64,000 bases of DNA from Lumbricus terrestris. Its lineage: Eukaryota; Annelida; Clitellata; Crassiclitellata; Lumbricidae. The notes under the pieces are model-generated. The model ran no database searches. It saw nothing but the letters and a program-made list of their open reading frames with translations, and was not told the origin of the DNA. A program made the translations under genes and the position numbers. Of this stretch, positions 2,550 to 64,000 are shown piece by piece (positions within the stretch are counted from its first letter, which is position 1; every line of letters begins with the position of its first letter). The stretch spans positions 27,563,400 through 27,627,399 of the forward strand of contig OX457041.1 of NCBI GenBank assembly GCA_949752735.1, in the 5' to 3' direction.

Positions 2550-5500
2550 ATGGACTTCCCAAAGGCTCCCGATGGTAAGATTCTAAGTTACGTACGTAAA
2601 GGCGTTATGTAGGATTAGTTAGAATTTGTTTTTCAATGTTTGCTTACGGAATGTACCCGACACCGGTGTGTCTGGTCATACCATGTTTTATTATTCGTGA
2701 GCTTTATGTTCGAGGGCAATTCTTGTATAAGCAAAATTAAAAGTTGGGTCTCCTACGGCCGGCTGATCAGTCATCACCGTACACAGACTTTTATAGAATG
2801 GATTGCTGCAACCTTCCACAGCGAAAATATGGTAAACACGCACACTGCATGCCCGTACTCCAAACAATATGGTTGACAACGAATACAATAAATTAGAGCG
2901 CAGCGACCTATCGACGGCATTTAAGGATGAGGTAAGAAGGAAGATCAGCAATAAAGTAATTTGAATAACATTCACGTGATCAAACCGCACAGGGTTTGCG
3001 CATCGGCATGCGTTGTCTCACAGTTGTCGATGAAGACGTGATGAGCAGGTAACATTCTTTATAGGAGGCAGTTAAAAACTTTAGCATGGTTGGGGTTGTT
3101 AAGACAGAGGGGTAAAGGGAGGAGTCATCATGCCCATATAGAGGTTGTCATATGTCTGCTGGTTGACAAAAAGAAACGTGAGCTCTGTACCATTTTCTAT
3201 ATACATGAACCTTAGTAATCTCAAAGTAGTGGAGATAGCTTACTGTAAGAGATTGCAAAATTCTATTTAATCCTAGGCTAGAGCAGCAATGTTGTTTGTG
3301 TAGATGCCAGGTTACCACCGGACTTATCTATGTTAGCTTCTACCACAAAATTTTTGTCAGTTTTTAAATTAGACCATTATATTTACATTTCTCTGAGAAC
3401 CATGAGAATAACTCTTATAAACTTAATATTTGAATCACCATGTCTTGGAAATATGTCTCCTGAAAATGATCTTTATACATTAACAAAAGTGTGTGAAATT
3501 AAGTATGCAACAAAAATAGAATAAGGAAAATTTTAACAATGCGAATTTTCAGATCCTGAGCTGAAGAACATTATCGACAAGTTGGCCAACTTTGTTGCAC
3601 GCAATGGACCGGAATTTGAGGCGATGACAAAGCAGAAGCAGAAGGACAATCCGAAATTCTCGTTCCTTTTCTCGGGAGACTACTTCAACTATTACCAGTA
3701 TCGAGTGACCACAGAACAAGCAAGTATGGATGCTTTTTATGTGATTTGAATGCAATGTCTGCTAAAATAAGACACTTAGTGTGGCTATGTCATTTATAAT
3801 TGTTCCCGAAATGTGTGCCCTTTGTAAACTTAGTAACAAATAGTACAGCAACCAGACACTGTCAGTGGGAAGAACAGACAGCAAAGGGACTAAACCACAC
3901 ATTCTAGTGTGCCTCAGAGGTTTGAAAAGAGATGGCTGATACTTCATATCCATGTCTGCCCGTTGGTATGGTCTCAAGGGACGTACTCTTCAAAAAATAA
4001 AGTGAATAGCAGAGTTAAAATAGGCGTTTAAGGCATTGTTCTTTTTGTTTGTACGGCAAAAAAATAAAATTCGTGTAGTAATTCAAACCAACAAGTAAGC
4101 AGTGAGAATTGATTATAACATGACAATATAATTATAACACTACCAGGTGATAACATGTTTAACCTTTCCCACCGGACAATTTAGCTCAATTCAATCATTA
4201 ATTGGAGTGGTAGAGGTTAACGTGAGTTGAATATAGTTGCTGTATGGCAGTCTGCAAGGTGTCCATCTGACCTTTAACTCGTTTCACAGTCATCCCAAGC
4301 GGGTTGCAGGGTAAGATGGGGCAAGTAGGTATTTAACCCGCATCCTTCTGATCTTTGTGCCAGCATGTTTCTAGTCAATCATCTCCTCACCGCAATGACG
4401 GCTCTAGTTAAACGAGGTGTATGAGGTGTGCTCTTTTCTTCTATATTGTCTTCTAGTCTTGAAACAGCAGCAGCAGAAGATGGCCCAACAGCAGGCGATG
4501 GTACAGCAGGCAATCACCCAGCAGGCAATACGAACAGCGCCATGGCAACAGCCGCTGCAGCAGCAGCCTCACATGCAGCAGGCGCAGATCATTCAGGACC
4601 AGCTCGAGCAGCAACGTCAGATCGCTCAGGAAGAAATCAAGCGCAGTGAGACGAATCTCGCAGCGCAGTATCAGCGGATTCTTCAGGAGCAACAGGTAAC
4701 GACGACAGGAGCAACACTGACGCGCGATTTGGATGGATGTTTGTTGCTTTCAACTTCAATCGCTTGGCTTATGTCTGCTTTGGATTTAAGGAGACAATTG
4801 ATATGAGCACTCCTCAGTCCTGAGGCTATATACAGTTTCATAACATGATCAATATCAGTTTTCCCATGATCGATCAGGTACCTGAACCGGAACCTGGGTC
4901 ATGGAGTTGAATAACCTGTATGCCATATCTTATATGTTTCATTTGAGCACCTTTACTGAAGCAGCAAATATGATAATATCGATATGCATTGTTTCTTGCA
5001 CAAATCGGCTTGTAATGCATATTCTGTTCAATCTGAGTTTTGTTCCGTTTAACTAAGAAGAGCTACTTTTTGATAAATTCGTTAAAAGATGCTATGTAAT
5101 GGTCTGTATATTATACATAGCTTCAATTTTAGATAACCTGTTTCCACTGACCAGTGCAACATTTCAGTCCATGTTGGTGCACGGTCAAAAGCGCGCAGGA
5201 CAAAAGCGCGCAGACAAATGCGCGCAGACAAATGCGCGCAGCGACATATGCGCGCAAGACAAAAGCGCCAACCGACAAATGCGCGCAACAGGAACAATGA
5301 AATCAAAATTTCGAGTATTAGAATGACCATTTAATATAACCACAACATCGTCAGAGACGGTTGTTAAAAGTAGATGAACAAGAGCATGTGGCGTAAGGTT
5401 CAAGACCTCTCTTGCCGCAGCCTATCGATCGTGACGACGAAAATATACGCCTTCAGAGAAATGGAAGCTGGATGAAGGTCAGAGAAATGGAAGCTGGATG

Positions 5501-8500
5501 AAGGTTCGCTATAGGTGAAATGGAAGCTGGATGAAGGTCAGAGAAATAGAAGCTGGATGAAGGTTCTCTATAGATGAAATGGAAGCTGGATGAAGGTTCG
5601 CTATAGGTGAAATGGAAGCTGGATGAAGGTTCTCTATAGATGAAATAGAAGCTGGATGAAGGTTCGCTATAGGTGAAATGGAAGCCGGATGAAGGTTCTC
5701 TATAGGTGAAATGAAAACTGAATGAGGCTCGAAATTTCGATTTCATTGTTCCTGTTGCGCGCATTTGTCGATTAGTGCTTTTGTCTTGCGCGCATATGTC
5801 GCTGCGCGCATTTGTCTGCGCGCTTTTGTCCTGCGCGCTTTTGTCGGCGTGCCGTCCATGTTATATGCTATCTGAAAGGAAAGGAGTCTGATTTCGAATA
5901 GTGTACAGTGCTCAGCAATTGTCAAAACTAGCCGAATGTCCCCTCATTTATTCTTCTTATCAAAATTCCCCGTGATGCAGACGACTGCACAATTGAGAAC
6001 ATCCTCGAGGCGCGTGACTTGTACGTTATCACACTTTACTGATCAATGCATTGAAGACATGCAGATCTGCGTCCCAGGTCATGCTGGCATCAACCCATCT
6101 TCTATCATCTGCGGTGAAGAGCACCAAGAGTTCACAGTCTATTGTCTGTGGCAATGGTTCCATAAGTCGTCTATTCCCTGAAGTAAAACCATGGGGTTGG
6201 AAACCATTACTCTTCGGAGAAAGCTGTGACCCCACGCTGATGAAGTCAAGCGCACTTCCGATCAACTGATTAAATTTTCGGTTTATGACACGTGTTTTAT
6301 TGCTTTGAATATTGTTGACTGCAGGTGATGATCGATGAGGCAATTGTTGCTGCGAAGAAGAATCACATTTCATCTCTGAGCCAGGAATGCGAGATTCCGT
6401 TGGAAGAGCTCGATAAAATCGTGTTGCCAATCATCGACTCCTGCACCAAAGATGCCATTTCCGTGGGTTTTTCTTTGACAACTGTTTGCTAATTTGCTGT
6501 TGCTTAAACTTATTTAACTAACAAAATAAATAAAACATGTTATTATTATTATTGTAAAAGTTTTCAGTTCACTCATGTAATGTAAATCTGAGGCGTGGTT
6601 AGTCAGTTTCCGGTAAGAATCCGGTAGGCTTATTTTTATTTATTTAAGTTTTTTTACGGGTCCTACATGTTCATTCCAAGTGTCTAGGATATTGTTTTAC
6701 CTTGAAGTAATTTGCTCCCTAGTGCTTACAATATCTGCATTTCCCTTTATTTCAGGACCGATGATTCGTTAAATTTGTTTACTTTTGCAGGGTGTTCCTT
6801 GTTCTGGAAGTGTATTTGTTTGCCTCTGAGTTTTAATAAGGGTCTTCTCAGTGTGGTCTTTAATATTGGAAGTAATATTTTTGCTCTTCAGGTACTTTAT
6901 CATTTCAGGAGTGTGCTGATAAAAGATTAACACTACCTGTATTGTGATAAAATTGTAAGTCATTAGATTAGTATACCCAACCATGTTTGCTTAATCTGTG
7001 TAAAATTATCTTTAAGTTTTGTGTATTGTTTCTACAGAATGGTAAAAATTGGATTTTCACCCACTTCACTTCACCAAAGAGTGGAGAACTTATAACAAAA
7101 TACCTGCTGGAAAGGTTAGATGTTTTGTGAATATGTTGAGGTAAACTTTCAATATGACCTGACTGTCTAGCGGAATATGCTTTTGACAATGCAACCATTA
7201 ATCAATGCTTATGTATTATAACGATGATGTTATAAAAGTCTGTTGATTTGATTCGATTATTAGAATATGGCACAGCTAGAAACTGCTGGTTCAAATTTAT
7301 GGTCTCTCTTCCAAAAATCATATACATGTACATGATGTACTTGTCGCAATACAGTAACGGAAAGTGTGTTTTCTCTCATCACACTATCTCTCGTGAGCTC
7401 TTTGAAATTCTCAGAATACATTCGGGAGTTACTTTTTGGGACAACTGGGTTGACAAACACAGCATTCTGTAGCACTGCAGCCTTGAAAATCAGTTCAGCA
7501 GCTCGGGAAGCATTTTCGGATTATCTTAATTTGCACCTTTTTTAAACCGTTCGATATTTTGAAGTTCTTGATGAGCTCTGTATATTTGTTGCAACACATA
7601 CATACATCTGTCTGAAATGGCTTACCTATTCATCGTCGCTTTCTCATTGCACGTCAAAGTTGAGGTTGACTGCAATGTTAAAGTGAGACAGTGCAGGAGG
7701 GAGTGATGTGATTACTTAACTATTCATAATTTCCTGTTTCGTGATAAAACACTTTCATCTTAAACTGATCTTTAGAAATATGACTTGTTGCGATGACTTT
7801 AACTTGTGTTGGCCACTTGAGTTGCGTCATGATGAAAAGGTGATGATAGCTGTTACTATTCCAAAGATATTGTTTTTGTAATTTTTACTGGGCATCTCTT
7901 GCATTTAAATTTGATTTCCTTGCAGGATTCTGGACAAGGATGCGACATTTGAACTGCGTCTCCATCTGATCTATTTAATAAATGACGTTCTTCATCACTG
8001 GTAATTATTCTAACCATTCTCTTTCTTTGCTACTCTTTATCCCATCTTAATATTTATCCACATTTGTTTGAGGTTGGTATTAACACATCACACTAATTCT
8101 AGATGATTTTATTTGACTGGTGTGCAAGAACCAATGTGTAGCGACCTCAGTTATATGACATATCGTGATATGCTTAATAAAATGATGTATTTCGAGTCGT
8201 ACTTCTATTCTAAAGTTATGTTCTTTCTATTCGTAATGAGCACTGTTTAGGTTAGTGTTATTTGAACATATTATTGGTAACTATAGTTGCTCCATTGTTT
8301 TATTTATTTTGTTAGTGATATAGCCACAGAACCACTTCAATAAGTATCTGATACAACTTGACAAATGTGATACTTGACGTTGAATTTAAAGTTAGAAGCC
8401 TTCTGTGCTTTTGACTTTGCATCATTTGTACTTTTTCAATTGTATCTGTTGTAGGCATGTGACATTTTGTGATGCAATCTGACAAATCATGCTTATATTG

Positions 8501-11500
8501 CGAAACCAACATTCACAAATAAGATTAACCGAAATATTTTTGGACTTATTTTAGATGTAAGATTTGGTGAGTAAGTAGGTTATGCATATAACTCTATGAG
8601 AATGCAAACAAGTAAGTATCAGCTGTACTAATTACCCCATTTCAGCAAAATGTACAATCACTAAATGCTTTCATGCTGTATAAGCCTGATTTTGTCACAT
8701 CGCCTTGCATGTATTTGAGAGATTTAATTCTTTTGCAGTTTGCGAAAGAACGTTGACGATCTGCGTAAGCTGTTGGAAGACATCGTCGTTGCTGCTTTCT
8801 GCGTTTCTCAGCTTGATGTTGACGAAGACCGCAAGTTGAAACTGTCTAGGGTTCGTTGTTTCTCCTGGTTTTTTGTTGGACTGAGTTTGGTTTTTCTTAT
8901 CAGGTTTAATTTGTTTGGATCCTGGGTTTGTTTACTGGCTTTGGTTTATCAAATAATAATGATGGATTTATGTGATCGGTTTTTGACTATTTAATCAAAC
9001 TTGACTTTTCCCATCAGTGTTAGGATTTGTTTTTGTTTTGTTTAATTTGTGTCTCATAGGGTGTTGCTTATTTTCACCAGGCGTGGCTTTGAGTGTAGTT
9101 TTTTGTGATCAGGTTTTGTTTGACTGTTGCTGAAACGATATTTTCCTATAGCCATGGTTGCTGATGAAGCTGGTTTTCATCTTCAAAGCCTGAGTTATTC
9201 CCTTTAACTCTTTGAAACATCTCATTTGGGGGGGAGGGGGTTCCACAGTAGCCTGTCTTCCAGTCTGTTGCCCTTTGCTGCTCAACTGGTTTTGTCTCGA
9301 CAATCACGATTAGCTGATTATCGATGTAATGTAATATAAGTTGATATCTTTTAGTGTTTGTGTGCATGGAGTAATGTGAATTCGCCTAGAAGTTACCATT
9401 GACTAGTGCCTTGTGTTCTTGTAATTGTAAATTTTATCATAGATTTGTGTTGTGCAACTTTAAGGGAAGCTCATCAGTAGAACTTGTGACAATTGAGCAG
9501 CACGATTGGATTAAATTGGGAAAAGAGGCTAAAATGACTAAGAAAACCGCATGTCACCGCGTAATAGAAGAATGGTCTGGCTATAGTGAAGCTTCTTTGC
9601 TGAACTGGGAAAGTTTGGAGTGGCTGGACAAGCAGGTCACCTTACACAGCAGTGCCAAGAGATCTTGGACTAGAATATGCAGAAGGGACTTAATGACCTT
9701 GAGATGTTGCACAGCCTGAAGGACAACTAGCCTATGCATTAGCATAAAGATTTAAACTCAGACAAATGCACTTTCTTTCACGTGAAGCTAGACATATAAA
9801 TTATATGCTTAAATGTAAGTGGTCTGCTGATTGGTAGAGCCATAGCATTTCACGCATATTGTAGCTCATCAAAGTGAAAAAGGACTAGACATGTGTAAAT
9901 GGCAAGATCATAATTAACCCTGGTGTGTGTGCTTCGATTTATGGTGATCAGAGTTGTGCTGAGCAACATTTATGAGGGCGATAAAAGTTTCAAGATTAGA
10001 TACCTGAGAATTTTTCTATTTAATTCGCTAGTTCGCTGTACAAGTTATGTCTTTTTTTGTGTTTCAGCTGCTTAGCCTGTGGGAGAGTAACAACTACTTT
10101 GAACAGGGTGTCATTGATGTAAGTTTCTTTATAGATGTTTGGTTTTATACTGTAGCCAAAATAGTGTTCGTAACTGACAATGACATGTTTGGTAATACAT
10201 GGGGAATCATGTAACTCTTACCTTTCTACCAGTACATCCCAAATATGTTCATCTCGGAATGAATGTAGAGTTCCCATGTCCCCTAGTGACAAGCAGTTCA
10301 GGTGGTTTTCTAGACCCTTGAACTAGCAATGGAGGAATCCAAAAATTGTGGCTAGAGAGTGCATCAAAGGACTTGCCAATGTTTACTTGGCAGCTGCTTC
10401 TTGTATGTACCAAATTATACAGACCAAGATAAACATATGTGGGCAACTTGCCCACAGTCGTTGCTTGATGCCCATTCAGCAGAATTCAACCTGCAGTTGG
10501 TGAATTGCAAGCCAGACATGCGCTGAATTGACCAATGTGTTGTAAATGTAGAATTCGATTGCTTAAAAAATAATGTGAAATTGTCAGTTTGTTGTTTTTG
10601 TGTCCTTTAAATTGGTAGTTTTTACCCAATGCTGTGGTGCTGAGGTTCATAGAGTCTATGCAAAATGTCTTATTGCATTACACGTGTTATCTAATGATAT
10701 ACTGCAGTAGTCATGCGTCACATAGCTGTGGTGACCTCCAGCACAGTACAGTAATTTTAATTATGCAATTTGCATTGTTTTATACCATAATATATATTCA
10801 TTTTACTAACACACAAAATTGTGGGATACAAACTATAAACCTGGAAGGAGGGATGGATATTAGCCTATTGCAAGTGTGTTTCTTTAGTGTATTTTTATAA
10901 AGTGTGTTTTTATATTCTGCATAATTGTAGCGTATGAAAGACCCGGACTCTGGCATGGCTACTTATCAGGTATGACATTCAATCACTATTGCCAAATTTC
11001 CTTTATGAAGCCGCGATTGTGATAAGTATCTGCAGAGGAATATAAACAATTGTGTTGGCTTTACCTTTAAAATTGTAGACCGAACTTTCTAAGAATTTAA
11101 TTAATCTCCTGTAACTGTTACTTGTACATTGTATATTAAAGACCTTTAACCGTGTTAAGGCCAAAAAAAATAATGCTGTGTTTCCGGTAACAGAGCTCTA
11201 AAAAATTGGGTGGGTAGGTCGAAAAATATTTTTATTTTGGTAAAATATTTTTATACAGCAACTATCCGAAAAATTATACCCAACTACTCTTTTTGCATAA
11301 AGGTACATGCTGCAGCAAAGTACGTGTTCTAAGCAAGTATAAACTGCCTATTTCCCGACTGTCTGTACCTAAAATTGCTCTAGAAAACAATTCTATTAAT
11401 TTCATTTTGTTGACATCTTTTGTGGTAAGATGAAGTGGGAAGGGAAGGGGAAGATGAGTGCGAACAGAACATCACTGCTAGGGGTCGTTCCAGACTGGCC

Positions 11501-14500
11501 GAGCCAGTGACTAGTTACATCTAGAGGTTGCTAGATTTATTATCCCTAGTCACCATTACAGGTGGCTCAAGTGAGAATGATAAGGCTAGAGGTTTTTCAA
11601 GACTGGCAACCAGGAAGTAGTTAGGCAGGCGTGAAACTCTAAGGCAATGTCACTGTAAATAAAAAAAATGTACAAAATTTTCAGAGTCTCGGCAATAAAA
11701 GTGAGTCAGTCGGGTTACCGGAAACACAACTTTTTTTGCCTAAAATCCAACTCTATACGGAAGCAATGTCACCATATTATGTTAATAAAAGTATTTTTAA
11801 ACAAGTTTAAAAAAAAATTTACTAAAAATTTTTTTTTTTAAATTTAATAAAAAAAATTTCAATAAATTTTTTTTACAAAATTATTTGAGTCGCGGCAATG
11901 AAAGAAGGTCGGTCGGGTTACCGGAAACACAACATTTTTTTTGGCCTAACTTTACTTGCATAGACCGTGCCTTTTGACTGAAGCTTCTGTTGTTGCCTGT
12001 CATCAGTTTTGTTAAGTTTCCGTTACAGACTATGCTTTTAGAAGTTTTTGTAGAGTGATCTGTAAGAAATTGTGTTGTCGCAGTCTCATAAGCTATCTCT
12101 GTAAAGTATCTATGGTTTGTGTCTTCAATGACTCTTCACTTTCAGCCGTGGCACATGTGTGTTTGGGTGTGTGGGTGTGTGCATTTTGTGTTCCATCCTA
12201 TCCTCACCTTTTGACCTTGCCACCAACAGTGCGTGTTTAGCTTTCTCAGATGATTGAGTGTTTGCTTTTATAAAAGGCGAGCCTCATAACGGACCATGCG
12301 ACTGAGGTGACGCATATCTCGACCGAAATGAACGCTCGATATCTGGCGCTTCAGAAACAACACCAGGACTTTGTCAACCACTGGAACAGCCAGATCACAA
12401 CTCTCGAACAACAGTTACTTCTCCAGAGTAAGTTACTTCTCCAGTGTAAGTCATATAATTGGGAACATCTCTGTGTTAGTCATTGTATTAGGAATATCTC
12501 TGGACATTCATGTATGTGTAATGCATGCATACATATGCATATAAGCAGGTACATATGTCGATTGTGGTGCTTATTGTTTGTGATTTATCGCAGTTGTGTT
12601 AGTTTATAAATAAAACTTAATCCTTTAATAATGAGCATGTAGTAAACTAGCACAGCTGACCATTAAAGGTTTAAAAATATAAGCTTTTTTACTTGTATGT
12701 ACGAAAGTGGAGGCCAAATATTTGCACCTGACTTGTTTGTTTCTATTTTAGGTTCAACTGGTACGAGCCTAATCAGTGCGGCATCTACCCAGATGGCGAT
12801 AGGATCTTCTGCTGCACTGATCTCGCAAGCGCCACCTAGTGGCATTGGTACCAGCCAGCTGTCCATTCCTCTGCCTATAGTGCAGCCATTGGTGGCTTCA
12901 CAGGTCTGTGCATTGGTTTTATCAAATGTTGGCTTTGCTTCTTTGTTTCACAGTATCTATCAAGCGCTGCTGTGACTTTTAAAGTGCTTTGAATGATCAA
13001 AGCAGAAACCCTTTAAAGAAATCCTTTGATAGTAACATTGGGCACTTTGTAAATGTCGTATTACATGCTTCTTGCTTGCATACATTTGTCTATGCACCAG
13101 ATGCATACATACAGAGTGGGCCATAAAAAGTACCCCCTAAGGTTTTTTGCCAATATCTTGGCCAGAAGTATGAATTTTTAAATGCAATTTACAGGCTTAA
13201 GGCTACCTTTTTATGGCCTACCCTGTATGTTCAGGCATATGCACACATACATAATCCACACAATCCAGGTACATGGATACATACATGCACTTGACTTGCA
13301 TATAGTTATACATGTACATGTATTCACTATTCATGTATATATATTTTGTATGTATGTATTTGTGCCTTTAGACTCCGGAGTGCATAGAAATTAGCTCATT
13401 GTTCGTTACTTGTATTTGTTGATCAATGCATCTTGTTGCAGTGTTCTCTGACATCAACAGCGCAGCAATCAATGGCTCAAGTTGGAGGTCCAATGGTCTT
13501 TCCTCCACCAGGTTTTGGTCCACCACCTCTTGGTTTTAGCCAACCACCACCTGGGTTTGGACCGCTCCCACCCCCTCAACAGTTTGACTACGCACATGGT
13601 ATGTAAACGATTGTCTTATCTTGTAATATACTGGATGATTGGTATTTGCTGGATGGTGTATACATACTTAATGGTTGGTATACGGCTATACGCTGAATGA
13701 TGAATATCTTAGATAATAGTTTTAACCAAGCTGTCAGTAATTTAACTCTGACAGCTTGTACTTGAGGACGGTGGAGGGAAAGAATTAATGTTTAGGGGAC
13801 ACTTTAGCTTGTGGACAGGATGATGGTGATATAATTAATGCTTACTGGATGGATATTTGTTGGTTGATCGCTGCATGTTTGTGGTGGGGTTTGTCTCCAG
13901 ATGCACAAACACTCAGCCGCAGACAAACCTGTTTTATATATACTTTTATAACTCAAGCGTAAGTTGGGTTGTTGAAAGATACTTCGTTAGCATGCTTCAT
14001 TTTATCATTGATTGTGGTGCTCAATGTTGTTGTCCAGACAATTTGTTTGTCAAGGACAGCATTATAATGAGCTTCTCACGCACCTGTATGCACCTACATG
14101 CACATATAAACAGGTGCGCACACATGCATTGCATATATGATATACATAAAATATGTGTGGATAATCATGTAACAATTTTTTAAACTCTAAGATCTGAGAA
14201 TCCTGTTTTTGTTGACCTTTCAGGTCAAGTTCCACCGCTGATGGGAGACTTTGGAGGTCTTCCTCCATCGCTTTCAAGTGCAGGACCACCACCGACAATT
14301 CATCTGCCTGATCTGAGCAAACCACCTCCAGGGTTTCCACCTGCTGGAGGCTTCCCCTCTGGAGCTATTCCACCTCTGATGCCTCCCAATTCTGATGCTG
14401 ATCTGATGCCTTCGATGCCATATTTTGACCTACCTGCTGGGCTAATGGCACCTCTTGTTAAGGTAAGACAGGTTGACACCTCTCGTTAAGGTTAGACAGG

Positions 14501-17500
14501 TTGGCACCTCTCGTTAAGGTAAGACAGGTTGGCTACTTTCGTTAAGGTAAGACAGGTTGGCGCCTCTCGTTAAGGTAAGACAGGTTGGCACCTCTCGTTA
14601 AGGTAAGACAGGTTGGCACATCTCGTTAAGGTAAGACAGGTTGGCACCTCTCGTTAAGGTAAGCCAGGTTGGCACCTCTCGTTAAGGTAAGACAGGTTGG
14701 CACCTCTCGTTAAGGTAAGCCAGGTTGGCACCTCTCGTTAAGGTAGGACAGGTTGGCACCTCTCGTTAAGGTAGGACAGGTTGTAGTACTTAACACTGAC
14801 TTATTTAAATTGATACAGATATGCATTTAACTGATGAATGTACGCTGCAAGTCTGTTAGCGCTAGATGTTGGGCGTCAAACTGTTAGAATAATATATACC
14901 GAGTTGCTTGCGACTGGAATACATTGAAATTTCTTAGAATCTATGACAGATTATTGCCTGAGTACTTGCCTTTATCATCATGTGTGTATTTTCATCAGCA
15001 TTGTCAAAGGCCTATATGTTGAATTCTGTTTCAATTATGCATTTAAATTTTTAATTAGTAAAAACCTAAATAGAATTCATTCAAACTACAAAATATAATT
15101 TATATTTTTAATGCTTAAATGTGTTACCATTCCATTGAACGTATGCGATGAATTTTGACATTTATGTTTCATTTATTGGTGTTCATTTTTACATATTTTG
15201 TGAACCTACCACAGGTTGTTGATTCTTTGACCTAAATATCTGTTGAAACATTGACCAGAATGTTTTCAACATTTTTGTGACCTATGACCTTATTTTTCTT
15301 GCACAAGTATTGATGCCTGTTATCACCATTTATTATATTGCACACATGCTAAGATCATGGACTTTTAAAATACTGAATGAATGCAGAATATAATATTGGC
15401 ATGAACGACATTGAACGTGTGATTGATCATGATACGTATTGGCAACTTGAAGTGGGCATTTGGAAGAAAGGGAATACTGTACAGCATGTTCTCATTTCTC
15501 AAATGTGCCAATCATATTCATGTGTAAATGAGACATGGAACAAAGATTACTTTGCTGGTGCATACATCGTATATTAGCCGCTTGCAAGATGTATTTACGT
15601 CTTTACTGTATGTTATGTGAATGCTATTACCGATTAATGTTGCTGGAATTTTACCTCAACCTGAAGAGGGAAAAGCTGTTGGTGAATATTTGGCTGTTAG
15701 ATTAGGGCGTGACTGTGAAGGTCTGATGGTTATTATGGCTGGTCTGTGTGTTGCACTTAGCTGGAGGATTGTGACTACAAGCCGTTAGATCCGAAGGACA
15801 TTCGTCTTCCTCCTCCAATGCCTCCGACGGAACGTCTGCTGGCCGCTGTCGAAGCATTCTACAGTCCACCGTCGCACGAACGACCAAGGGACAGGTCTGA
15901 ATCATTAATGCTTCCTCCTTTTTTTATTTCATGGATGTCAGTAAAGACCTGTGCTATATAGACGATGTGCAAACCTGTGGCATCATTTGGAGAGTAACAA
16001 AGTTTTGAAGAGTGGTGGAAAGTAAAAAAGTACGTGTTTGGTTTGTTTGAAAGTAAAAAAGTAAGTGTTTGGTTTGTTTGAAAGTAAAAAAGTAAGTGTT
16101 TGGTTTGTTTGAAAGTAAAAAAGTAAGTGTTTGGTTTGTTTGGAAGTAAAAAGTAAGTGTTTGGTTTGTTTGAAAGTAAAAAAGTAAGTGTTTGGTTTGT
16201 TTGAAAGTAAAAAAGTAAGTGCTTGGTTTGTTTGGAAGTAAAAAGTAAGTGTTTGGTTTGTTTGAAAGTAAAAAGTAAGTGTTTGGTTTGTTTGGAACCA
16301 TATGTACAGACATAGTGCCACCTATTTGTATAAGTGCTGCAGTTTTCTTGTTGGTAGCATGCTTGGACTGTAAAGCAGAGATTACATTTTCAATCCAGCT
16401 TAGCAGACTGCATGTAACAACCCTGAACAATTTATTCATGTGCACTTGTCTGTCACCAAACAATATTTGTCACTGCCATGAGCTTGGAAAGAAAGAGGAA
16501 AACCTGTGAAGCAACAACAACGCAATTTACACGACCTTGAATTTTATCGGCTGATAGCTGAAGAGCCTAAGAGAAGGAAGTGAGTGCTTGCTGTTCATCC
16601 TACATGGAACAAATGTCCAGTTCTTTACTGCCATCTACGAGAGGCACTATATAAATTCATGGATACAATACAGTACTGAGGAGTGCTACCTTCAAGATAT
16701 ACACTACTGTGAAACTTAAATTGTTTTGTTAATTGGCTGTTCCTTTTAATTAATTTTTAGCGATGGATGGGAGAAGCTTGGTTTGTTTGAATTCTTCAAA
16801 GCGAAGCAAAAGGCAAAGAAGATGAAAGCGGAACGAAATGTCGGACGCAGAAGGTCACGTTCGCGGTCGCGTTCTCCGTCCCCGAGACCACGTCGGCGAA
16901 ATTCTCGAAGATCAAGGTTACAACTTTTTCGATTGTAGACTTTAGACTTTGTTGCAGACCATCTCCAGCTGCAGAAGCATCAGTCGTATAAGAGCAAACT
17001 TGTTATTGTTTTCTGTTCTAACTATAATTTCATAAGTTGGTGAAAATTGCTTTTATGTGATATATTAAAAACCTTTGTAAATGCCGAGCTATATGCAAAA
17101 TAGCAATAAAAATAATAGTGATAATAATAATGATAATAATAATGATGAATAATGATAGTAATGATATGATCGTATATTACTTCAAACTGACAACTACGCT
17201 GTTAGATAATAATGAATAATAATGATAATAATGAATAATTACAATAATCATAGATTACATGATGTAGTCATAACAGACGATGATGACATGTTCAACATGA
17301 GTTGAATTTAACTGTGTGCCATTCTGCAAGGCATCTATCTGCTTAGATATGTGGCATGCATAGTTTGAATGCATACTCAACTACATGCTGTTATGCACAT
17401 TCATGTGTGTACTGTGCTTTTGTACATTCCTACTATTGAACCTGGCTTCAAAGCAAACACTGAAACAGTTCATTGAAGTACTCAGTATATACAGTAAAAC

Positions 17501-20469
17501 TGTATACAGTAAAACTATATGTATACAGTAATACTCATTACTTGTTCAGACAAATTGACTGACAGCACTGCAAAGTTTCATGCATAAAACTGTATACAGT
17601 AAAATGGTCAACGTTTAGTTAAATACACAGTATTTACTATCAGTCAAGAAAATTTACCAGTTCCTATTTTTGGAGAGACCTGAACAAGAACTGTGCTTGT
17701 GAACGAATGTTTTTAATTGATGCAAATAAATTTTAGAATGTTCTTCCTACAGGTGTCTTTTCTTTCTGCTTGTTTTTTTTTGTCATGTTGTTCTCAAGCG
17801 AAAAGTATATATTTTTTTCAAATTGCATTTTTGCCATGACCTTCTAGATTTAACCTGTCTACTGCAGCTCGAGTGCGATTTGCCATCTTTTCATTTCTTT
17901 GTTGCACTGAGAGTGGCAGGATCAGACAGTGAGCACCTTGCCATTCACCCGCACTTGCAAATGCTACGACATGGACTCATTAATGCTTTATATTTGTGAC
18001 TGCTTCTCATGGTCAGTCAAAGACTGTTTCTCTTTTGCATGAAACTTTGCAGTGTTGTCAGTCAAATTGAAAGATGCTTTATGTTGTAAATTGCTTCTGT
18101 CATATAGATCAAGATCAAGGTCACCACTTGAGTATCAGAGAAGTTCACTGTCAAAGTCAAAGTCGAAGTCGCGTTCTAGATCGAGGTCAAGATCTCGTTC
18201 TCGATCAAAGTCACGTTCTCGGTCAAAGTCACGTTCTCGATCTCGTTCTCGATCTCGATCGCCTGCTCGAAGACGTTCCGTTGAGAAGAGTCCGCCTGCT
18301 GCGGGATTCTTGTGAGTACAGATTGTGCTTGAGAGATGAAAGAGAGCATTTCCACAGACTCTGTTTAAGTTCTACTTCTGAGAAGGTTTCCAGGAACTCA
18401 GTTTCCTTGGCATCTTCCAGTGATCTATGTTCCCTTTGGATTTTCACCGTTCCTGCTTTCGAGATGCTGTTCCCAGGGACTTTGTTTCATTGACAAGGTC
18501 CCTGAGGTTTGCTAGAGACCTTAGAAACCGAGGTTTGCTGACGATCCTTGGAGTGACCTTTAGAATCGAGGTTTCAGTCCTAGAAATATCTGGAACCCTG
18601 TCCTTAAATTATTTACTAGCGTTATTATTTTTAAGACATTTTTCTGCACCTTTTTACTTTCATGCTTTATAAGGACATGATAATTCCACTGTGTGATTGT
18701 TTGCATATGAGAGTTCAGGCACTTTTTGGCTTTGTATTGTTACTATTTGAATTTTAATTTGAGTGCAGTTATTGGTGACCTCTCCAAATATGAATTATGG
18801 AATCTTTACTAGGATTCTAGAATATTATTCTAATGAACCCCTGGACTTAACCCTTTGCCAGCTCCTATAGATATAGGGTCCCATACCTTGCTTTAGCGAT
18901 AAAGGGTTAAATAGTTGCATTGACGTCTTTTCAGCAACAAATCTTGTTCAACGTGGGGGTTAATGGTTAATAGAACTTTGACTCTAGCCAACCATAGCCT
19001 TTCTTCTAAGTCTTCTTACTATCCGACAAATCATCTGGTTGTCTTAATTTCATTGTAAACACCTAAAACCAGAACAGTGCTTTGGAAAAAAGCCTTTTGA
19101 GTCGGTGGAATCTAAATTCTGTAAAATTTGTCTTCCTGTTTCTGTTCATTCTACTCACTTTGCATCTAATTTTCAACTTAAAAGTTTCTTTTTCAACTTG
19201 ATCTCTACACCATTGTCTGTCTGTGTCTGTCTGTCTCTCTCGCTCTATGCCACAGCGGACTGACTTTCTGGATGTTGTCCCGGTTGCAGGATGTATTTTG
19301 TGCCTTTGGTGGATGCCATCCACATTTGATATTGCTTCTATAGAGATGCTCCTACACAATATCTTCTTTGCTATGTGGTGCTCTACATCCCAAACATATT
19401 GCTGACCACGTGCAGCTTTAATCTACTTTTGACTGATCTCCATAATTTGCTTTACAAAATAAGAAAATAGTTATGTTGTTCATGTCGTAATAATAATTGT
19501 GGACAGGTTTAAAATAGACTTGTGATGAATGTATTCATTTGTAGAATGTGTACATAATTTATTAAATGTAAGCACATATTATAAATGTAAGGATGTTGAA
19601 GGTATCGACTTGTCATAGGCCTAGATGTTGGATAAATATTAGCATTATATTATTATATTATATTTTAATATTATTGTTTTAATTAATGAATGATTGTCTC
19701 TTCTTGTCTCTCTGTATCTTCAGTTCTGAACCGTATTATCAAGCAAACGCTGAGTCACGTCTAGGGGAGGAAAACAAAGGACATCAGCTGCTGACTAAGA
19801 TGGGTAAGAAGACCAAATGAACTGTTTGTCTTTCGCAGATTTTTCTCGAGATACTGTTTTTGTTCTGCAGCTCGGCAACAAGCATCAAATATTTGCTGAG
19901 AGCGTTGAGCAATTTTTGAACTGTCTTAAAATGCACTTATTCAGATCTGTTGGATAGGCATGATGAGTACGGCGTGCACATGTGAGTTATTTAACCCTTT
20001 AATGATACATGTAACATAATACTCTATTGCTGTAGTTCAGCAAATATCTTTGTAACATGTTTTTTGCAATGCTACATCTATTAGCACTATGGTTTGGGTT
20101 GACATTGCTGTTCGTGTAAAAATTGTTCACCTTCATGGTCACGTTTGTTTGTTTATGATAAATATCTTCAAGGACTGTAATACTTAGATGTTTCGACACC
20201 GGTACAATATATTGGAATCATGCTGTAGCTGAGTTATGATTTTTCCAGGTTGGGGTGGAGGTGGACTTGGAACGCGAGAGGAAGGCATCGTCGATCCCAT
20301 CAACCATGCAGATGTCCGCGATAAAATGGATCAGTTCAAAGGTCTCGGCCTTCCCATGAACGATCCGTTTGAGCAGTTCCGCAAGAGCAAGAGTCACGGC
20401 TTTACTACTCGGATGAGGGAAAAGGCAGAGGCTGCTGCCGCCACTGTTACTCAAACACCGGCTGTTTGA
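2550..20469 (+). CDS. CHERP: CHERP homologue (SURP, CID, RS and G-patch splicing factor), 18 exons
   Basis: Exons: 2550-2574, 3553-3723, 4457-4695, 6325-6462, 7038-7114, 7926-8000, 8739-8850, 10068-10118, 10931-10969, 12277-12427, 12752-12903, 13442-13598, 14224-14462, 15761-15894, 16761-16916, 18108-18311, 19724-19803, 20249-20469. All introns are GT..AG. The exons sum to 2421 nt, giving 806 residues and a TGA stop. Residues 12-62 are a SURP domain (NIIDKLANFVARNGPEFE). Residues 66-145 are a glutamine-rich helix. Residues 146-296 are a CID, the RNA polymerase II CTD-interaction fold. Residues 410-540 are proline/glycine-rich. The block MPYFDLPAGLMAPLVK is at 527-542 and ERLLAAVEAFYSPPSH follows. 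An RS domain covers about 613-695, and a G-patch (about 721-765) starts LGEENKGHQLLTKMGWGGG. The order and motifs match human CHERP, which is somewhat longer. In vertebrates CHERP associates with the U2 snRNP and was first described from effects on ER calcium release. Weak donors follow exon 4 (GTGGGT) and exon 7 (GTTCGT). The first ATG gives the conserved N-terminus MDFPKAPDDPEL. The homology call is firm; exact ends of the short exons are inferred from phase and conservation. Confidence 0.95.
5176..5853. mobile_element. Non-autonomous TIR element with GCGCGCA-repeat termini (CHERP intron 3)
   Basis: Inverted ends of about 120 bp are each built from tandem copies of ACAAA(A/T)GCGCGCAG, followed by CAGGAACAATGAAATC. 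The left end carries one extra unit. The flanks are a direct duplication GTCCATGTT (5167-5175 and 5854-5862). The interior is a tandem array (5455-5715) without coding capacity. A 9-bp duplication with long TIRs suggests a Mutator-like relative, and an 8-bp reading would suggest hAT. The class is therefore open, while the insertion structure is clear. Confidence 0.85.
5455..5715. repeat. Minisatellite inside the TIR element
   Basis: Tandem units of about 20-33 bp contain GAAATGGAAGCTGGATGAAG, alternating between TTCGCTATAGGT and TCAGA-type linkers, with about ten copies. Copy number probably varies, and the array makes a spurious 103-residue frame on the minus strand. Confidence 0.85.
11154..11950. 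mobile_element. Fold-back/MITE element in CHERP intron 9
   Basis: The left end TTAAGGCCAAAAAAAATAAT, followed by GCTGTGTTTCCGGTAAC, is matched by the inverted right end GGGTTACCGGAAACACAAC, then a T run and GGCCTAAC. A third, internal copy of the right end lies at 11712-11742. The remainder is AT-rich and non-coding. I saw no clear target duplication. Confidence 0.75.
13112..13225. mobile_element. 114-bp mariner-type MITE (CAGRGTGGGCCATAAAAAG family)
   Basis: Ends CAGAGTGGGCCATAAAAAG and CTTTTTATGGCCTACCCTG form inverted repeats flanked by TA on both sides. The interior contains TGCCAATATCTTGGCCAGAA, also present in the longer relatives at 44961 and about 47794. It lies in CHERP intron 11. 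Confidence 0.8.
14457..14783. repeat. 28-bp minisatellite built from the exon 13 splice donor
   Basis: There are twelve 28-bp units, each starting GTTAAGGTAAGACAGG and ending TTGGCACCTCTC. The first unit is the real exon 13 end plus its donor (exon ends at 14462), so every later copy repeats the exon tail and a GTAAGA donor. Units differ by single bases (GTTAGA, GTAAGC, GTAGGA). Confidence 0.95.
16021..16292. repeat. 31-bp minisatellite in CHERP intron 14
   Basis: About nine units read AGTAAAAAAGTAAGTG followed by TTTGGTTTGTTTGAA, with small length changes (30-31 bp). The minus-strand frames of 112 and 169 residues (NKPNTYF repeats) are products of this array and not genes. Confidence 0.95.
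17103..17250. repeat. AAT/GAT-rich imperfect microsatellite
   Basis: Imperfect AATAATGATAATAAT runs occupy two blocks (17103-17165 and 17205-17250) within CHERP intron 15. Confidence 0.8.
17552..18068. repeat. Inverted repeat pair upstream of CHERP exon 16
   Basis: A 36-bp sequence (AATTGACTGACAGCACTG, then CAAAGTTTCATGCA) at 17552-17587 recurs inverted at 18032-18068 with few changes. The right copy ends 39 bp before exon 16. Nearby (17456-17620) are several copies of CTGTATACAGTAAAA. Confidence 0.8.
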
Positions 20470-30050: not shown

Positions 30051-59245
<29,195 letters not shown>

Positions 59246-63688: not shown

Positions 63689-64000
63689 ATGGATGGGGCA
63701 TAAGGACCATCATACATGGGGCATAAGGACCATCATTCATGGGGCATAAGGACCATCATTCATGGGGCATAAGGACCATCATTCATGGGGCATAAGGATC
63801 ATCATTCATGAGGCATAAGGACCATCATTCATGGGGCATATGGACCATCATTCATTCATGTGGCATGAGGACCATCATTCATGTGGCATGAGGACCATCA
63901 TTCATGGGGCATAAGGACCATTATTCATTCATGTGGCATGAGGACCATCATTCATGGGGCATAAGGACCATCATTCATGGGGCATGAGGGCGATCATTCA
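63689..64000. repeat. 23-bp minisatellite running off the window end
   Basis: Units CATGGGGCATAAGGACCATC + ATT repeat about 13 times, with variants GTGGCATGAGG and a 4-bp insertion CATT. The array continues past 64000. Confidence 0.95.

What the first reader, a model, noticed from the sequence alone, without database searches (positions are those of the whole stretch)
14457..14783. A minisatellite made of twelve copies of a real splice donor
The 28-bp unit consists of the last 6 bases of CHERP exon 13 plus its GTAAGA donor, continuing to a copy of the preceding exon tail (CACCTCTC). Eleven extra donors therefore stand directly behind the authentic one, each with an exon-like GTTAAG|GT context. 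Using any of them adds 28n bases and meets TAA after eight codons (VRQVDTSR, stop), so use of a decoy would give a premature stop. The array could tune CHERP level by copy number, and CHERP is itself a splicing factor.
Basis: seen in the sequence. Interest (0 to 1): 0.75.

Follow-up and report, generated by a model that had tools for sequence, protein, structure and literature searches.

The report
Twelve-copy exon-intron junction repeat in CHERP
In a worm's CHERP gene, the short stretch of DNA that marks the end of one exon stands twelve times head to tail, leaving eleven spare "cut here" signals behind the real one; a similar repeat is known in a human gene, and whether any of the spare signals is ever used is unknown.

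Summary
The array is real: twelve 28-bp copies without indels, 14446-14781. Each unit is the last 17 nt of CHERP exon 13 plus the first 11 nt of its intron. Eighteen exons join into an 806-codon frame, so the donor at 14462|14463 is authentic. All 11 downstream donors keep GTTAAG|GT; 8 equal the authentic one by score. Use of any of them, or intron retention, gives VRQVDTSR and a stop.

Decoy use and dose tuning are unproven. A relative's protein, 95% identical, has the normal LVK-LED junction, and 0 of 126 held proteins have the decoy tail. Changes between copies hit the donor at the neutral rate (3 of 10; 3.2 expected). Closest precedent: human CBS 31-bp VNTR, c.1444_1467+7(16_21). Verdict: a new member of a known kind, most likely a slippage-born minisatellite with at most leaky decoy use. 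The host groups with a leech CHERP, so it is probably a clitellate annelid.

The parts
2550..20469 (+). CHERP gene, 18 coding exons, 806 codons from ATG to stop; SURP, CID, DUF7819 and G-patch domains
   Evidence: in-frame join of 18 exons (exons 2-18), Pfam on the exon 2-18 protein, homologues
14224..14462 (+). CHERP exon 13 (239 nt), ends ...PYFDLPAGLMAPLVK, phase 0
   Evidence: motif around the junction conserved in relatives
14446..14781 (+). 28-bp minisatellite, 12 head-to-tail copies of the exon 13/intron 13 junction (17 exonic + 11 intronic nt)
14463..14464 (+). GT of the authentic donor AAG|GTAAGA, the highest-scoring of the 17 authentic donors (7.16; next 5.16, exon 1)
14491..14492 (+). 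GT of decoy 1 (AAG|GTTAGA), the weakest decoy
14519..14720 (+). decoys 2-9 (last exonic base at 14518, 14546, 14574, 14602, 14630, 14658, 14686, 14714), all AAG|GTAAG[A/C]
14743..14776 (+). decoys 10 and 11 (last exonic base at 14742, 14770), AAG|GTAGGA
14487..14489 (+). TAA met in frame by each of the 11 decoy products and by the retained intron
14463..15760 (+). intron 13 (1,298 nt); acceptor ...TTGCACTTAG|CTGGAG
15761..15894 (+). exon 14 (LEDCDYKPLDPKDIR...), joined in frame by the authentic donor
16018..16294 (+). second 31-bp array, in intron 14, with 8 AAA|GTAAGT donor-like sites; that intron's own donor is CAG|GTCTGA
12413..12451 (+). two-copy (18 bp) repeat across the donor of CHERP exon 10 (end 12427); use of the second donor (12445) would add 6 codons in frame

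Best explanation
A 28-bp segment spanning the exon 13/intron 13 junction of CHERP was duplicated head to tail, and the copies then grew in number by slippage or unequal exchange into the intron (inferred). The result is one authentic donor followed by 11 donor copies, 8 of them of equal predicted strength (shown by score). The spliceosome mainly uses the authentic first donor and so makes normal CHERP (inferred, from a close relative's protein). Any use of a later copy, or retention of the intron, leaves an in-frame TAA in the mRNA with further exon junctions downstream (shown on the sequence), which should send it to nonsense-mediated decay (established knowledge; not tested in this animal). 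The array is therefore most likely a tolerated junction-spanning repeat of the human CBS type, with at most a leaky loss of mRNA and no selected function. This includes, as its limit, the case of no decoy use at all.
For: 12 copies with unit = 17 exonic + 11 intronic nt; gene model and phase; the same stop for 11 of 11 decoys and for retention; the 9 highest-scoring donor-like sites on the gene's strand are the authentic donor plus 8 decoys; 14400-14830 folds less stably than 100 of 100 shuffles (z +3.67), so the donors are not predicted to be hidden; P0001, 95% identical over 722 columns, has the normal junction; donor positions change at the neutral rate, 3 of 10 against 3.2; shared private changes in copies 8/10 and 11/12 fit one- and two-unit expansions on the intron side; CBS precedent (PMC2630376, passages).
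Against: No RNA from this species was examined, so main use of the first donor rests on a relative that may lack the array. As I recall from in-vitro work on duplicated donors (the paper looked for was not held), equally strong competing donors often favour the intron-proximal copy, which would predict much decoy use. The neutrality test has 10 events and little power. The copy number comes from one sequence.
Confidence: 0.75

Rival explanations
1. Copy-number rheostat: decoys are used at a substantial rate, the fraction sent to decay grows with copy number, and so array length sets CHERP level.
For: 8 decoys equal in score to the authentic donor, and 11 of 11 give a stop; [quoted passage not shown] 2001, seen in a reference list).
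Against: No protein with the decoy tail among the 15 hits or the 126 held, though decay and 90% clustering would hide one; no excess conservation of decoy donors.
Confidence: 0.15
2. Passive array (the limiting case of the best explanation, so the odds overlap): exon definition and transcription order commit the first donor so strongly that the decoys are never used.
For: The intron 14 array holds 8 donor-like sites far stronger by score than that intron's own donor (5.56 against -0.07), yet the gene's frame needs the weak one, which suggests that score alone does not decide; P0001 reads normally through both junctions, although it is not known to carry either array.
Against: Unlike those of intron 14, these decoys begin only 28 nt away and carry exon-like flanks.
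Confidence: 0.3
3. Recursive or corrective splicing: because each unit ends its exonic part in AG just before GT, copies act as acceptor plus donor, so that a decoy product can be re-spliced from the authentic donor to the unit's AG and be corrected.
For: The unit has CCTCTCGTTAAG|GTAAG; scored as acceptors the 12 copies (-1.13 to 3.95) overlap the 5 weakest of 16 authentic acceptors (-0.14 to 1.9, leave-one-out).
Against: 11 of 16 authentic acceptors score above every copy, and 10.7% of 971 AG in 3600-20400 score as high as the best copy; position -3 is A; I saw no good branch point in the unit by eye.
Confidence: 0.03
4. Assembly artefact: the copy number, or the array itself, is an error of assembly.
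For: Tandem arrays are often mis-sized in assemblies (general knowledge); no reads could be checked.
Against: Copies carry distinct private changes and there are no indels; the array abuts an intact coding exon.
Confidence: 0.04

Closest known systems
Human CBS 31-bp VNTR, c.1444_1467+7(16_21)
   Same: Minisatellite whose unit spans an exon-intron junction (read from its name: last 24 nt of an exon + first 7 nt of the intron, 31 in all), so every copy brings a donor; many copies.
   Different: Gene, species and sequence differ; there alleles of 16, 17, 18, 19 and 21 copies are tabulated (PMC2630376, passages); here variation between individuals is unknown and the unit is 17 exonic + 11 intronic nt.
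CBS 844ins68
   Same: Duplication across a splice boundary giving two competing sites, with normal mRNA still made.
   Different: [quoted passage not shown] PMC7277093, passage).
Intron gain by tandem duplication of AGGT segments (Rogers model; ATP2A1; potato RdRp; fission-yeast multiple 24-bp duplications)
   Same: Tandem duplication of short segments carrying AG and GT.
   Different: There a new intron is created out of the duplicated segment; here the array lies at the start of an intron whose acceptor is not a repeat copy (PMC4974935, passages).
Earthworm metallothionein intron minisatellites
   Same: Minisatellites in introns of an annelid gene.
   Different: In the first intron; not described as spanning a donor in the passages read (PMC12783039, 12 of 21 passages).

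Membership tests
Junction-spanning VNTR (CBS type) | Repeat unit includes exon end and intron start, so each copy has a donor | tested here: met
   17 exonic + 11 intronic nt; 12 of 12 copies with GT
Junction-spanning VNTR (CBS type) | Copy number varies between individuals | not testable with these tools
   one sequence only; own-genome search did not complete
Junction-spanning VNTR (CBS type) | Repeat donors used in vivo, or expression associated with length | not testable with these tools
   no RNA data from this species; no protein with the decoy tail found
Minisatellite | Head-to-tail tandem units of about 10-100 bp | tested here: met
   28 bp x 12.1, 93% matches
NMD-coupled alternative 5' splice sites | Alternative donor use introduces a stop upstream of later exon junctions | tested here: met
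   11 of 11 decoys give a stop after 541 codons of the exon 2-18 model (550 codons with exon 1 for decoy 1); four exon junctions follow exon 14
NMD-coupled alternative 5' splice sites | Both donors are used | not testable with these tools
   needs RNA-seq with decay blocked
Tandem-duplication intron gain (Rogers) | Both splice sites of the intron come from the duplicated segment | tested here: not met
   the acceptor TTGCACTTAG|CTGGAG does not resemble the unit, by eye; the array ends at 14781, 979 nt before the intron's end
Tandem-duplication intron gain (Rogers) | The intron is absent from relatives | not testable with these tools
   no genome of a relative could be searched

The most novel reading that the evidence does not exclude
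The array is a working dosage element in a splicing-factor gene: CHERP, a U2 snRNP-linked factor, influences which of the twelve donors is chosen or whether the intron is removed; every wrong choice ends at the same TAA; and array length, which can change by slippage, sets the gain of this self-control and varies heritably between individuals.
Probability: 0.06. Interest if true: 0.8.

Novelty: new member of a known kind. Interest (0 to 1): 0.4.

Why it matters
Twelve near-identical donors in series, nine of them equally strong by score, are a natural experiment on how the spliceosome picks one donor among equals, a question that, as I recall, is mostly studied with two duplicated sites. A junction-spanning repeat like that of human CBS, here in an annelid splicing-factor gene, suggests that such arrays arise independently and could be searched for systematically, with copy number as a ready-made variable for expression studies.

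Tried and rejected
Secondary structure hiding the decoys: not supported; 14400-14830 folds less stably than 100 of 100 shuffles (z +3.67). Selection on decoy donors: 3 of 10 change events fall in -3..+6 against 3.2 expected, so no sign of either keeping or purging; low power. A general tendency of this gene to duplicate its junctions: of the 32 junctions tested (16 donors, 16 acceptors; exon 1's donor and the exon 2 acceptor not tested), 2 donors and 0 acceptors have a copy with 3 or fewer of 18 mismatches within 60 nt, but so do 6.9% of 5,000 random positions in the gene (arrays included), so 2 is unremarkable (P = 0.30 for 16, 0.66 for 32). Coding use of the array: rejected, stops occur in all three + strand frames, and in the three minus-strand frames too. 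The intron 14 array as a derivative of its own exon's donor: rejected by eye only. Decoy-truncated protein among public proteins: 15 hits, none with the tail. Literature: Hodson 2012 and Lievers 2001 are not held, so the proximal-donor rule rests on recall and the CBS effect on a seen title. Only one search put CHERP beside repeat terms, asking for any 2 of 4 terms: 5,608 papers, 10 listed, 0 of those 10 with the word CHERP; it does not show that nothing is in print.

Full report
What is there. A 28-bp minisatellite lies at 14446-14781 (12 copies, no indels). In register, each unit is TGGCACCTCTCGTTAAG|GTAAGACAGGT: the last 17 bases of a coding exon and the first 11 of its intron. Copy 1 is the real junction; it differs from the array consensus at one silent position (CTT against CTC).

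The gene. Exons 2-18 join in frame into CHERP; exon 1 (MDFPKAPD) is at 2550; all 18 together give 806 codons with one stop, at the end. Pfam finds SURP, CID, DUF7819 and G-patch domains. A loose motif around the junction (P[AG]GL[MI]..L[VI] and the next four residues) matched in 126 of the 126 homologues held, which are 120 of the 404 hits and 6; 108 of 126 read KLED across the junction and 62 read APLVKLED. The exonic half of the unit is thus old coding sequence, and the array most likely grew out of it into the intron.

The host. On a quick tree of 120 homologues plus the window, the window joins P0001 (95% identical over 722 columns), and these two join P0002 and P0036 with SH-aLRT 99. P0036 is Helobdella robusta, a leech, class Clitellata. 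The host is probably a clitellate annelid; P0036 sits on the longest end branch, so this is not certain.

The donors. By a human donor weight table recalled from memory, the authentic donor AAG|GTAAGA scores 7.16, the best of the 17 authentic donors (next 5.16, exon 1; then 4.31). Of 1,217 GT dinucleotides on the gene's strand, 9 score 7 or more and all 9 lie in the array: the authentic donor and 8 decoys. Decoy 1 (GTTAGA, 2.91) and decoys 10-11 (GTAGGA, 4.59) are weaker. Pairing with the U1 5' end gives -9.5 kcal/mol for the authentic donor and the 8 strong decoys, -9.2 for the last two and -5.6 for decoy 1; by this measure the gene's other donors come closer (exon 17's -9.2, and two at -8.5). 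The region folds less stably than 100 of 100 shuffles, so structure does not obviously hide the decoys.

Consequence of decoy use. Each of 11 decoys, and retention of the intron, gives VRQVDTSR and then TAA at 14487-14489. Skipping exon 13 also leads to a stop. Four exon junctions follow exon 14, so decoy mRNAs should be targets of nonsense-mediated decay (established rule, not tested here). Because 28 is 1 modulo 3 and each unit brings a TAA in one frame, stops recur in all three frames of the array on this strand.

Is it used? No RNA of this species was available. P0001, a protein from a 3,296-nt contig (source label lgn, which I recall to be Logan assemblies of public reads), has the normal LVK-LED junction, but its species may lack the array. 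A search with the truncated product found 15 proteins; all 15 are among the 126 held, of which 0 contain the decoy tail. Decay and clustering at 90% identity could hide such a form. Of 10 change events between copies, 3 fall in the 9-nt donor, 3.2 expected: no sign that decoys are kept or purged, with little power. Copies 8 and 10, and 11 and 12, share private changes, which fits recent one- and two-unit expansions on the intron side.

Neighbouring arrays. Intron 14 holds a separate 31-bp array with 8 AAA|GTAAGT sites scoring 5.56, while that intron's own donor is CAG|GTCTGA at -0.07, the fourth weakest of the 16. Of the 19 sites scoring 5.5 or more in the gene, 9 lie in the first array, 8 in the second and 2 elsewhere. 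The donor of exon 10 (12427) is also repeated once, 18 bp on, in frame. Junction-spanning repeats are still not more common than repeats at random places in this gene: 2 of 16 donors and 0 of 16 acceptors tested, against 6.9% of 5,000 random positions (P = 0.30 for the donors).

Known relatives. The human CBS 31-bp VNTR is named c.1444_1467+7(16_21), which I read as 24 exonic and 7 intronic bases; copy numbers from 16 to 21 are tabulated (PMC2630376, passages). A 2001 title seen in its reference list links it to reduced CBS activity. That is the same anatomy. Tandem-duplication intron gain (PMC4974935, passages) uses similar DNA events but makes new introns; here the acceptor is not a repeat copy. 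CHERP depletion alters splicing, mostly intron retention, in human cells (PMC8910253, abstract); since retention here gives the same stop, a CHERP effect on this intron would be self-reinforcing at low CHERP, unlike the negative feedback that I recall for many splicing factors (inference).

Conclusion. The best account is a tolerated junction-spanning minisatellite, a new member of a known kind, with at most leaky decoy use. Its value is as a natural test bed for donor choice among equals.

Noticed in passing
window 16018-16294: 31-bp array with 8 AAA|GTAAGT donor-like sites in CHERP intron 14, whose own donor (CAG|GTCTGA) is the fourth weakest of 16 scored; use of any of the 8 would give a stop after FISWMSVKTCAI.
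   Followed up: partly
window 12413-12502: The donor of CHERP exon 10 (end 12427) is repeated 18 bp on (second donor adds 6 codons in frame), followed at once by a 29-bp two-copy repeat that begins with GTGTAAGTC / GTGTTAGTC.
   Followed up: partly
window 5180-5850: Inverted repeats (longest pair 103 nt, 95% complementary) around a 33-bp minisatellite in a CHERP intron: looks like a MITE-like element with an internal array.
   Followed up: partly
window 30054-31025 (-): Open frame with several C2H2 zinc fingers; by recall it resembles the Snail/Scratch family.
   Followed up: no
window 40154-41326 (-): Reverse transcriptase (RVT_1) fragment of a retroelement.
   Followed up: no
window 63693-64000: 23-bp minisatellite (ATGGGGCATAAGGACCATCATTC), 13 copies, runs to the window end.
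   Followed up: no
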